NCBI GenBank assembly: GCA_903813345.2
Contig: CAIIXF020000007.1
Coordinates: forward strand, 11,849,730-11,913,729
DNA from: Owenia fusiformis
Lineage: Eukaryota > Annelida > Polychaeta > Sabellida > Oweniidae
Direction: 5' to 3'
DNA: 64,000 nt
This document shows positions 57,401 through 63,400 of the stretch, in pieces. Position 1 is the stretch's first letter, and each line of letters starts with the position of its first letter. Below the pieces are notes generated by a model. It searched no databases. It worked only from the letters and a program-made list of their open reading frames with translations, and had not been told where the DNA came from. The position numbers and the translations under genes are program-made.

Positions 57401-60400
57401 GTTTAGTATGAATTTCACCCAAACTTCGCACATATATAGATATACTCATGATCTAGTCAAATAGGGATATCTGGTAAATATCCGACCCATGGTTTTCATA
57501 AAAGAAACGACAATATTTTTAGCTCAAAACTGCCACGTGTCCGCAATTTCGTGATTCCATCATGTCTAATATCATTTCTATATGACGTCACACCAATAAG
57601 ACGAAATACATGTACATGACAACAGTATCCATAAACAAAATTCTTGAATTCTGATCGCAAAAGGTCAATTGACCACCATACTTGGGATTCACATATTATT
57701 TTATTTTCTCACGAATGGACAAAGATAATAGTACTAGAATAGTAATACATTTGGAAGTTATTTGGTGATAAAGATTAACCCTTAAAACTATAATGAAACT
57801 GACAGGAGAAAATGATGGGAATGAATTGACTCATATTGTTGTTTCAGGCTGTCTCTATGCTGTCTGATGTCATAAGAGACAATTTCCGCAACTCCAAAGT
57901 AAAACAAGCTCTACTTCCAGCTCTAGGTGAACTTGTATTCCTAATTGCAAAGCAGGTAAGAGTTGCATACATTGAATGAGGAGTGATATCAAAAGAGTAA
58001 AAATATTGAATTATATAAACTTATATTTTATGATGTATAGGTTGATTCTACATTTATCTAGCTAAATGCCCCAATGTTATTTGTTCAGCTATTTCTTTAT
58101 TCCTCCTACTATTATGTCATTTTTAAACTAAATATTCAGCCTTGGCTCTGACTAAAAACTGATCCCTGGAACACTGAAACTTCCGATTGATGCTTGAATT
58201 ACTGATTTAACTTGGACAACTGAAAAATATATAAACTGTGTGTCAATAAAGAAAATTAACTGGCTTATTATTGTAGAATCTTGTAAAAATTTATTGTACA
58301 ATATCAGCATTAGTGCATTTGTTGTTTTGCAGGAAGAGGCAAAAGGTGAATCTGTAGACAACTGGGTGATTCCATCTATGACATTTACATTGATCATTAT
58401 TATTGTGGATATATTGTATAATATCAGCATTAATGCATTTATTGTTTTGTAGGAAGAGGCTAAAGGTGAATCTGTAGACAACTGGCTGATTCCATCTATG
58501 ACATTTACATTGATCATTATTATTGTGGATATATTGTATAATATCAGCACTATTGCATTTATTGTTTTGTAGGAAGAGGCAAAAGGTGAATCTGTAGACA
58601 ACTGGCTGATTCCATCTATGACATTTACATTGATCATTATTATTGTGGATATATTGTATAATATCAGCATTATTGCATTCATTGTTTTGTAGGAAGAGGC
58701 TAAAGGTGAATCTGTAGACAACTGGCTGATTCCATCTATGACATTTACATTGATCATTATTATTGTGGATATATTGTATAATATCAGCATTATTGCATTT
58801 ATTGTTTTGTAGGAAGAGGCAAAAGGTGAAACTGTAGACAACTGGCTGATTCCATCTATGACATTTACATTGATCATTATTATTGTGGATATATTGTATA
58901 ATATCAGCATTAATGCATTTATTGTTTTGTAGGAAGAGGCTAAAGGTGAATCTGTAGACAACTGGCTGATTCCATCTATGACATTTACATTGATCATTAT
59001 TATTGTGGATATATTGTATAATATCAGCATTAATGCATTTATTGTTTTGTAGGAAGAGGCTAAAGGTGAATCTGTAGACAACTGGCTGATTCCATCTATG
59101 ACATTTACATTGATCATTATTATTGTGGATATATTGTATAATATCAGCATTATTGCATTTATTGTTTTGTAGGAAGAGTCTAAAGGTGAATCTGTAGACA
59201 ACTGGCTGATTCCATCTATGACATTTACATTGATCATTATTATTGTGTATTTATTGTATAATATCAGCATTATTGCATTTATTGTTTTGTAGGAAGAGGC
59301 TAAAGGTGAATCTGTTGACAATTGGGTGATTCCATCTATGACATTTACATTGATCATTATTATTGTGGATATATTGTATAATATCAGCATTATTGCATTT
59401 ATTGTTTTGCAGGAAGAGGCTAAATGTGAATCTGTTGACAACTGGGTGATTCCATCTATGACATTTACATTGATCATTATTATTGTGGATATATTGTATA
59501 ATATCAGCATTATTGCATTTATTGTTTTGTAGGAAGAGGCTAAAGGTGAATCTGTAGACAACTGGGTGATTCCTTCTATGACATTTACATTGATCATTAT
59601 TATTGTGTATATATTGTATAATATCAGCATTAGTGCATTTATTGTTTTGTAGGAAGAGGCTAAAGGTGAATCTGTTGACAATTGGGTGATTCCATCTATG
59701 ACATTTACATTGATCATTATTATTGTGGATATATTGTATAATATCAGCATTATTGCATTTATTGTTTTGCAGGAAGAGGCTAAATGTGAATCTGTTGACA
59801 ACTGGGTGATTCCATCTATGACATTTACATTGATCATTATTATTGTGGATATATTGTATAATATCAGCATTATTGCATTTATTGTTTTGTAGGAAGAGGC
59901 TAAAGGTGAATCTGTAGACAACTGGGTGATTCCTTCTATGACATTTACATTGATCATTATTATTGTGTATATATTGTATAATATCAGCATTAGTGCATTT
60001 ATTGTTTTGTAGGAAGAGGCTAAAGGTGAATCTGTAGACAACTGGGTGATTCCATCTATGACATTTACATTGATCATTATTATTGTGGATATATTGTATA
60101 ATATCAGCATTATTGCATTTATTGTTTTGTAGGAAGAGGCTAAAGGTGAATCTGTAGACAACTGGGTGATTCCATCTATGACATTTACATTGATCATTAT
60201 TATTGTGGATATATTGTATAATATCAGCATTATTGCATTTATTGTTTTGTAGGAAGAGGCTAAAGGTGAATCTGTAGACAACTGGGTGATTCCTTCTATG
60301 ACATTTACATTGATCATTATTATTGTGTATATATTGTATAATATCAGCATTAGTGCATTTATTGTTTTGTAGGAAGAGGCTAAAGGTGAATCTGTAGACA

Positions 60401-63400
60401 ACTGGGTGATTCCATCTATGACATTTACATTGATCATTATTATTGTGGATATATTGTATAATATCAGCATTAGTGCATTTATTATTTTGTAGGAAGAGGC
60501 TAAAGGTGAATCTGTAGACAACTGGCTGATTCCATCTATGACATTTACATTGATCACCAGGTGTTTGAGAGAAGGGGTCAGTAAACATTCATCTGACATT
60601 AAAGTTCATTGTCATTGTAATGAATTAAACTAAAAAAATGTATGAAATGTTGCCATGCTCATTGTTCATTGATTATCTAACAATATTTTGTGACATATTA
60701 GACTCATTTAGTTAATATTAGCAAAGTACCAATGGCATTTATATTTTGAACATTCATTCATTGAGTGAAGGTTTCTAAAATGACAGGGAGGATTGGCAAT
60801 ACCGATTCCCTTCTGATCCTATGATAGTATGTTCAGTGTGTTCAAATGACCAAGGAATTATTGGTGTTATTTATTGTCTTACAACAAAACTGGCTATGTA
60901 TTCATGAAAACAATTCCAAAAATTTGAACCAGTGAATGATCACTTCTTGGTTGTTTTGAAATATTTGATTGAGCATTGAGAGTGAGGCCAAAATTCTTGA
61001 TTGAAATTCTATCTGACAAAATGGTGGCAATTTAATTTTGAATTTTGTAATCATGGCAGACAAGATCTTGGCCTCCATGATGTCAGAAAATCAGCTTAGA
61101 ATGTTTGGAGCCAATCCTCTTTGATAAGTATTACCTATTTACAATACAGATTACATTTACTTATTGTTGCAGGAAGATGCTATAGTAAACCATTATGCTG
61201 CTAAGATTGTAGAGAACCTTCTCTCTACTACAGGCCAATATGCAAACAAACTTGTTGCAAATGATGTAGGCCAGTTCCTCTGGTACATCTTCACACACTC
61301 TACGGTTGATGCCCTTAGAATCACAGCCATTACTGTAAGTGGTTTTTCATGAGAATACATTAGTTTTTTATGTGGTAGATTATAACACACTTAATGAATA
61401 GTTATGCTATTATATTTTTATCACAAAGAAAAGATTTTAAATGATTGTCTTAATTTTGCAGTTGATTGTGCCTTACCACATGGACCCGTAAGCATGGGCG
61501 TAGCGCTATTTTTCTAAGTAGTACGCCACCAGCACAGGAACAAGAGTTGAGTGAATGAAAAAACGAGCATTCAGGAGGGTCTGGGGTTTTTCCCGCAGGA
61601 AAATTTTGAAATTTGGTTGTATTTGGAGCGAATTTGCAACCATCTGGTACACCTATGCGTACCCAGCGTACCGGGCGCTACGCCCATGCCCGTAAGCAAA
61701 CTGGACCGTCTATCTTGCGCAAGTTAGGATCTTATTGATGCAAACTTTTTCTTTCATTTTTAGGCACTATGCAGGATAAGCCGATGTTCAGTGAATATAT
61801 TCCAAAGTATCATAGATAAAGTTGGCCTTCCCAAGATATTAGACACATTGTCCATTGGAGTGAGCAAGATACAACAAGCTCTCGTTACAATGTTTGGATT
61901 GTTACTTTCAACAGGCTCTCATGTCAGCAGGCTCTGGCAGGACAAGGTAGGTTGAATCCCATGATCCTCTCTGCAGGCTCTCATGTTAGTAGACGCTGAC
62001 AAGACAAGGTAGGTTGATTCCCATGATCCTCTCTGCAGGCTCTCATGTTAGTAGACGCTGACAAGACAAGGTAGGTTGAATCCCATGATCCTCTCTGCAG
62101 GCTCTCATGTTAATAGACGCTGACTAGACAAGGTAGGTCGATTCCCATGATCCTCTCTGCAGCCACTCATGTTAGTAGACGCTGACAAGACAAGGTAGGT
62201 TGATTCCCATGATCCTTTCTGTACAATCATTCATATCACCAGGCTTTGGCATGATGAAGCAGGTTAACTCCCATGAAACTGTCTCTTGGCTCTTGTTTGC
62301 AGAAATTGATGCTTTCTTTCTTTATTCCTATTGTTTCAGAGTTTCATACAAAAGGTCATGCGTCTCTTGGAGAGTCAGTCTGCTGTAGTGAGAGGCAAGG
62401 CATATGTTGTCACTACAAAGATCATATCAAGCAATCCAGAGATGTTTCTAACCTGCTGCCAAATGAGGTATGACTACACACTCATTAGACATATTAAATA
62501 TATAGAATTTTTCTGTATTGTTACAAGTATTGTACAAGTACTATACTCAAATGCCTTAAACAGAAGAAAGATGTACATTGTGTTTGCAAAGTTTATAGTA
62601 ACATCATAATGATAAATCGTTTATTTCTTTGATTGTTATGCAGTAAAAAAACAAATTCTGTCATCAAACATGGGATATAAGATTAATTATATGTTTTGTG
62701 ATCTATCTTCAGACTGGTCATGTATGTGGAGAGAGACAGTCGCAGAAGTAATCCGTCCAAGTCACAATCTACCGCTAATGTAGACTACTTAGTGCAATGT
62801 CTTTCCTTCCTTATTGACAGTATAGTCAGAACTGTGCCAAGGGTTTGTGGTAGGTTACTCTTTTTATGTGTAATGACTCATTGCTTCACACTCATTATAT
62901 AACAAAAGTACCACTACATTTTCCAGTGGACCATTAAACAGAGTCTGTTATTTCTCAACCACAGCTATTTATGTATATGTTTAAAATATCTAGTGTAAGG
63001 TTGGGAGTGTTTTCTTGTTGGTAAGATACCAAAGTTTAATATGTTCTGCTCTAAGAACTCAAGGTCATAAAATGAGAAAATGTGGTGTCATTTCCAATGA
63101 AGTATGAAAAAGTCGTATGAACATAAAATAACAAACATAAGAACAAAAAATCTACAAAAAATGTACAGAAGCAAGAGATAATGAAATGAGACCTTGTGTA
63201 AATTAAATCCAGGACTTAATTTCTCCATGAGTCATATACAGAAACAGGTTTTTGTAAAAATAGCTCAAAATTTGATATGCATGAACCATGTATTTCTCTA
63301 GGTGATGTTGTTAGTGCACTAGATGCTGTACATGGTAGAAAGCATCCATCCTCTGCTCAAGCCAAAGACCTGAAGACCTCTGTCCCAATGGTGCCTGTCA

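What the first reader, a model, noticed from the sequence alone, without database searches (positions are those of the whole stretch)
58292..60576. ULK4 exon 16 acceptor and exon start amplified into a 19-copy, frame-preserving minisatellite
Sequence shows 19 units of exactly 120 bp, each with a 3' splice site and the first 64 nt of a conserved coding exon. Only the last copy has the rest of the exon and a donor. So 19 competing acceptors face one donor. Splicing to the last acceptor gives the ancestral 28-codon exon. Splicing to an earlier one would extend the exon by a multiple of 120 nt and keep the frame, but the TAG acceptors downstream are read as in-frame stops. The acceptor therefore doubles as a stop codon that polices mis-selection, probably through nonsense-mediated decay. 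I know of no described exon-derived satellite of this kind in ULK4.
Basis: partly seen in the sequence, partly recalled or inferred. Interest (0 to 1): 0.93.

Follow-up and report, generated by a model that had tools for sequence, protein, structure and literature searches.

The report
Exon-edge minisatellite in worm ULK4
A stretch covering a splice site and the start of an exon has been copied 19 times in a probable marine worm's ULK4 gene; such exon-edge repeats are known from amphioxus, but here they look like a common and probably mostly harmless feature of the genome.

Summary
The array is real: 19 units of exactly 120 bp. Each carries a 3' splice site and the first 64 nt of a ULK4 exon. 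Only the last unit (exon 60493-60576) has the rest of the exon and a donor. All 18 wrong acceptors lead to an in-frame stop. The class is known: boundary-spanning minisatellites are called 'mirages' in amphioxus Adh, globin, TnC and PGBD5 genes.

New here are host and frequency. The genome is most likely an annelid (fits Owenia fusiformis). The same gene has two more such arrays; a kinesin gene has an 18-copy twin. In a survey, 12 of 150 exons had boundary-spanning arrays (8%, interval 5-13%).

Arrays are not enriched at exon edges: they cover 6-8% of intron bases, 3-5% of exon-end bases, 1% of exon cores. Periods that are multiples of three are at chance (7 of 17). So 'frame-preserving' and 'policing' need no special explanation. 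Best reading: neutral minisatellite growth across a splice site, tolerated because only the last copy has a donor nearby.

Oddity: variants in untranslated copies are synonymous more often than expected (10 of 18 against 4.4, P=0.003).

The parts
58265..60556 (+). 19-copy array of 120-bp units (56 nt of intron 3' end + first 64 nt of exon); copy 1 is the diverged 5' edge
   Evidence: the 58265 edge was read by eye
58333..60436 (+). 18 upstream exon-start copies (starts 58333 + 120n, n = 0-17) lying within the intron, each with its own AG and no donor scoring as high as the true one
60493..60576 (+). Working exon: the only copy with the full 84 nt / 28 codons [28 protein letters not shown]; donor GGG|GTCAGT at 60577
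57848..57955 (+).
61173..61334 (+). Downstream exon, donor ACT|GTAAGT at 61335
50998..51213 (+). Second boundary array of the same gene: 107 bp x 2, acceptor side of a kinase-domain exon (51141-51306); the upstream copy (acceptor 51034) is frameshifted and hits stops
61912..62221 (+). Third boundary array of the same gene: 62 bp x 5, donor side; donors at 61947 (working), 62009, 62071, 62133, 62195; each of the four later donors gives a stop at codon 64 of the exon

Best explanation
This is a 'mirage': an ordinary minisatellite whose unit happens to cover an intron/exon boundary. It grew by unequal exchange or slippage across the intron end and start of one ULK4 exon. It is tolerated because splicing pairs an acceptor with a nearby downstream donor (exon definition), and only the last copy has one close by, so the extra copies are removed with the intron. 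The genome, most likely the annelid Owenia fusiformis, has many minisatellites, and they often run over exon edges. Shown: the anatomy, the stops, the two sister arrays, the kinesin twin, the frequency in sampled exons, and the lack of enrichment at edges. Inferred: the mutational mechanism, the species, and normal splicing to the last copy.
For: Two further boundary arrays lie in the same gene, one on the donor side, neither with a unit that is a multiple of three. A kinesin exon has the same architecture: 18 copies, 16 spacings of 159 and one of 158, only the last with the rest of the exon. 12 of 150 sampled exons have boundary-spanning arrays: 7 of 80 kinesin and myosin, 3 of 40 kinase, 2 of 30 phosphatase and dynein. 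Array cover falls from 8.3% of bases 150-450 nt upstream to 5.3% in the 20 nt before the match, 4.5% in its first 20 nt and 1.3% in exon cores, so arrays are thinned at exons, not drawn to them. Copies 9-18 show a 3-unit (360-bp) pattern with identical units at lag 3, as block duplication gives. Edge copy 1 is the most diverged: 16 differences from the consensus against 0-4 in copies 2-19. Some other arrays have lost splice signals in copies: no AG in one L070 copy, GT lost in two L135 copies, donors decayed in L048. Amphioxus mirages do not disturb regular splicing by RT-PCR (PMC3087553).
Against: No RNA evidence here. Variants in the 'dead' copies are biased towards synonymous change (10 of 18, expected 4.4, P=0.0026), which simple neutrality of each copy does not predict. 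The true donor is weak (3.5), only slightly better than AAG|GTGAAT (3.0) at +13, present in 16 of 19 copies. The frequency depends on the sample: the 30 best-scoring kinase matches, many with long open frames and probably intronless, had 0 of 30; with them it is 12 of 180.
Confidence: 0.85

Rival explanations
1. One reading: competing acceptors with built-in stops form a quality-control or unproductive-splicing switch, where mis-selection is destroyed by nonsense-mediated decay and so may tune ULK4 level.
For: All 18 wrong acceptors give a stop 87-2127 nt before the exon end, beyond the ~50-nt rule (recalled) and so NMD-prone; AG kept in 19 of 19 copies.
Against: Stops are the usual result of reading intron as exon; the two arrays of the same gene with units that are not multiples of 3 do the same. 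Multiples of 3 among periods are at chance (7 of 17, P=0.33). Copies 10 and 13 have CAG, not TAG. Arrays are not enriched at boundaries.
Confidence: 0.05
2. Recombining reservoir: unequal exchange between the last, working copy and upstream copies keeps swapping the first part of the exon. The copies then store and return coding variation, and copies that would break the exon are weeded out although never translated.
For: Synonymous excess in untranslated copies (10 of 18 variants against 4.4 expected, P=0.0026; ULK4 4 of 8, kinesin 6 of 8). The working copy shares its CTG (Leu) with copies 2-8, while copies 1 and 9-18 have GTG (Val), as if the last copy had been exchanged.
Against: Two arrays supply 16 of 18 variants; variants need not be independent; the test was devised after seeing the data. 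The L121 array shows a nonsense change in one copy.
Confidence: 0.15
3. Assembly artefact: copy number inflated or invented.
For: Long tandem arrays are error-prone in assembly; no reads available.
Against: Copies differ by structured variants with a 3-unit pattern; similar arrays with differing units and degrees of decay occur in other genes. Copy number itself may be inexact.
Confidence: 0.03

Closest known systems
[quoted passage not shown] PMC3902484, one passage; the Adh paper PMC117041 is not held)
   Same: Unit spans the boundary and many copies carry the splice signal; acceptor or donor side; an edge copy is the genic one; homogenisation inside the array.
   Different: Host is probably an annelid, not a cephalochordate; 19 and 18 copies in the two largest arrays here against 6 and 3 in the two BflGb6 haplotypes quoted (copy numbers of Adh3 not seen); a rate over sampled exons is given, which none of the passages I saw does.
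Variable internal tandem repeats at exon-intron boundaries in human segmentally duplicated genes (PMC2812944, abstract and passages)
   Same: Minisatellites at exon-intron boundaries.
   Different: There they are reported to make novel introns and alternative transcripts in young paralogs; here the exon is an old one with its length unchanged.
Intronic minisatellites and exon-4 duplications in earthworm metallothionein genes (PMC12783039, passages)
   Same: Annelid, minisatellite in a gene, duplicated exon absent from transcripts.
   Different: Those arrays are described as lying in the first intron, not as spanning a splice site.
Tandem whole-exon duplication with mutually exclusive exons (e.g. 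myosin heavy chain; PMC3912159, search listing only)
   Same: Repeated exon sequence in tandem.
   Different: There each copy is a complete exon with both splice sites and diverged protein (recalled); here copies lack the donor and are near-identical.

Membership tests
Mirage (boundary-spanning minisatellite) | Tandem repeat whose unit spans an intron/exon boundary | tested here: met
   56 nt intron + 64 nt exon per unit
Mirage (boundary-spanning minisatellite) | Splice signal present in many copies | tested here: met
   AG in 19 of 19 copies
Mirage (boundary-spanning minisatellite) | One authentic genic copy at the array edge continues into the rest of the exon | tested here: met
   Only copy 19 reaches a full exon and donor
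Mirage (boundary-spanning minisatellite) | Concerted evolution inside, edge units excluded from it | tested here: inconclusive
   Met at the 5' edge: copy 1 has 16 differences, copies 2-19 have 0-4, with a 3-unit block pattern inside. Not seen at the 3' edge: copy 19 has 3 differences.
Mirage (boundary-spanning minisatellite) | Regular splicing is not disturbed | not testable with these tools
   No RNA data
Mirage (boundary-spanning minisatellite) | Length varies between haplotypes or cells | not testable with these tools
   Found at only one place in the assembly; no reads
Poison-exon / unproductive-splicing switch | Alternative splice choice gives a premature stop | tested here: met
   18 of 18 wrong acceptors
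Poison-exon / unproductive-splicing switch | The alternative is actually and regulatedly used | not testable with these tools
   No RNA data
Mutually exclusive exon cluster | Each copy is a complete exon with acceptor and donor | tested here: not met
   18 copies lack the last 20 nt of the exon and its donor; no other GT in the array scores as high as the true donor

The most novel reading that the evidence does not exclude
In this annelid about one exon in twelve carries a boundary minisatellite, and the arrays act as recombining stores of exon sequence. Unequal exchange keeps swapping the working exon's start with its intronic copies, so copies that are never translated still keep a codon signature and feed variation into the protein.
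Probability: 0.15. Interest if true: 0.75.

Novelty: new member of a known kind. Interest (0 to 1): 0.5.

Why it matters
It takes a curiosity described in amphioxus genes to what is probably an annelid genome and puts a rate on it: about 8% of the conserved-domain exons sampled. That makes two questions directly testable with long-read and RNA-seq data: how reliably the spliceosome ignores up to 18 near-identical decoy acceptors, and whether such arrays exchange sequence with the working exon. It also warns that gene models and exon-duplication counts in such genomes need care.

Tried and rejected
Amphioxus as host: considered first because of the mirage literature. Rejected because G000's 12 large contigs (31.9-62.2 Mb, lengths) hold 477 of 498 Mb and a haemoglobin-linker domain, annelid-specific as I recall, has 3 matches over cut-off. 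The PDB check of one of these is weak (best hit a haemoglobin linker at E 0.0025). That Branchiostoma has 19-20 chromosomes is recalled. O. fusiformis: 505.8 Mb, 12 chromosome-scale scaffolds (PMC9977687, passages). The species is inferred, not proven; no COX1 match was found.

Frame preservation as a selected property: rejected (7 of 17 periods; TRF's main period, for L096 the BLAST offset; several arrays mix lengths, e.g. L147 51 and 52). Stop codons as special police: not needed. Acceptor-side preference: 8 to 5 in the survey, 11 to 6 with ULK4 and kinesin, not significant.

Second-array search, by eye, for adjacent matches to the same profile stretch: kinesin gave one. Pkinase gave a GSK3-like pair of whole exons. 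Myosin gave an alternative-exon cluster. ABC, phosphatase and dynein gave none. These searches score only the best candidates.

Survey limits: exon ends are domain-match ends, hence approximate. I took 150 matches, mostly in E-value order: 40 kinesin, 40 myosin, 40 kinase, 20 phosphatase, 10 dynein. Left out were the 18-copy kinesin array, the myosin alternative-exon cluster, most rows near a region already taken, and the 30 best-scoring kinase matches plus later ones with long open frames. Those 30 were checked apart: 0 of 30. A few fetched regions overlap (e.g. L076 and L079). On re-check L048, first put aside as intronic, proved a decayed donor-side boundary array and was added. Not counted: L156 and the 26-bp array of L115 (both start after the donor), and L148 (three short copies reaching the acceptor; borderline).

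Full report
What is there. The array is exact: 19 units of 120 bp, exon starts at 58333 + 120n, TRF score 4215 with 0% indels. Each unit holds 56 nt of intron end with an AG acceptor and 64 nt of exon start. The last unit alone continues to an 84-nt exon and a GT donor at 60577. The gene is ULK4: its kinase part matches ULK4 structures at E 1.3e-78 and 6.8e-78, the next kinase being at 1.4e-24. A guide search with human ULK4 as I recall it places 14 exons in order from 42434 to 63426 (a further match at 53732 with E 6 is not counted), to which I add 51141-51306 by eye. The repeated exon aligns to the same 28 codons in that recalled protein. The unit gave matches only here in the assembly.

Stops. 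Joining the upstream exon to any of the 18 earlier copies gives a stop after 39 codons (79 for copies 9 and 12), 87 to 2127 nt before the exon end. But the same holds in the other two arrays of this gene. At 50998-51213 (107 bp x 2, acceptor side) the wrong acceptor gives a frameshift and stops. At 61912-62221 (62 bp x 5, donor side) all four wrong donors give a stop at codon 64. Neither unit is a multiple of three. Three of the 15 ULK4 exons that I located carry such arrays.

A twin elsewhere. Searching the genome with the kinesin motor domain gave 18 matches to the same profile stretch on contig C2. The sequence shows the same architecture: 18 acceptors at spacings of 159 (one of 158), about the first 128 nt of an exon, and only the last copy with the remaining exon and donor.

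How common. I took 150 exon matches of five domain families with 450 bp on each side and looked for arrays (period 20 or more, or self-matches of 30 nt or more) that cross the match end and cover the splice site, then read the sequence by eye. The counts are 7 of 80 kinesin and myosin exons, 3 of 40 kinase exons, and 2 of 30 phosphatase and dynein exons. Together that is 12 of 150, Wilson interval 4.6-13.5%. They comprise 13 arrays: 8 acceptor-side (L064, L070, L072, L096, L115, L121, L147, L159) and 5 donor-side (L048, L067, L121, L135, L165). In L048 and partly in L135 the copied donors have decayed. The kinesin 18-copy array was left out of this count. The 30 best kinase matches, many with long open frames, had 0 of 30; with them the figure is 12 of 180.

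Not drawn to exon edges. Over the 150 regions, arrays cover 8.3% of bases 150-450 nt upstream, 5.3% of the 20 nt before the match, 4.5% of its first 20 nt, 1.3% of exon cores, 3.1% of the last 20 nt, 3.7% of the next 20 nt and 5.6% of bases 150-450 nt downstream. This looks like a minisatellite-rich genome whose arrays run over exon edges at about half the intron rate and are largely absent from exon cores. Match ends only approximate exon ends. Seven of 17 array periods are multiples of three (P=0.33).

Evolution of the ULK4 array. Copies 9-18 show a three-unit pattern with identical units at lag 3, while copies 2-8 form another group. Copy 1 is the most diverged. In the untranslated copies of six arrays, 10 of 18 variants are synonymous against 4.4 expected when each change type is placed at random on the same base (P=0.0026); 16 of the 18 variants come from the ULK4 and kinesin arrays, and two of the six arrays have none. 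The test was post hoc and variants may share tracts, so I treat it as a lead. The likeliest cause is exchange with the constrained working copy.

Donors. Reaching the true donor from copy 17 or earlier needs an exon of 324 nt or more. That is why I expect exon definition to favour the last copy, with any misuse decaying with distance. This is inference.

Organism. G000's 12 large contigs of 31.9-62.2 Mb hold 477 of 498 Mb; GC of 35 loci is 0.36; three matches over cut-off to a haemoglobin linker domain that I recall as annelid-specific (weak PDB support). Owenia fusiformis has 505.8 Mb and 12 chromosome-scale scaffolds (PMC9977687, passages). I conclude annelid, probably Owenia.

Known or new. 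Boundary-spanning minisatellites are named 'mirages' in amphioxus and are reported not to disturb splicing there (PMC3087553, abstract and passages; PMC3902484, passage). My searches (open PubMed Central papers only, top listings only) listed no report of them in an annelid or in ULK4; an earthworm paper describes intronic minisatellites (PMC12783039, passages). So this is a new member of a known kind, in a new phylum as far as these searches show, with a rough rate.

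Noticed in passing
window 44664-46715, minus strand: Long open frame of 683 aa coding for a leucine-rich-repeat protein (LRR_8 E 7.2e-48), lying antisense between two ULK4 exons.
   Followed up: partly
G000 C9:37986009-37994334: Myosin gene with 12 matches to one exon's profile stretch at irregular spacing, presumably alternative exons, unlike the regular arrays.
   Followed up: no
L034 (C10:2256896-2257205): GSK3-like kinase gene (name recalled) with two adjacent, diverged, complete copies of one exon, each with acceptor and donor; looks mutually exclusive.
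   Followed up: partly
L115: A myosin exon bracketed by two different minisatellites: 32-bp units over the acceptor and 26-bp units starting just after the donor.
   Followed up: partly
L121: One kinase exon with boundary arrays on both sides (86 bp x 3.8 and 71 bp x 2).
   Followed up: partly
window 61912-62221: Units of the 62-bp donor-side array also contain an acceptor-like CTCTCTGCAG, so copies could act as short cassette exons.
   Followed up: no
window 923-2069; 26417-27028; 20623-21132: Other long arrays (476 bp x 2.4; units of about 74-208 bp) and a retrotransposon zf-RVT fragment.
   Followed up: no
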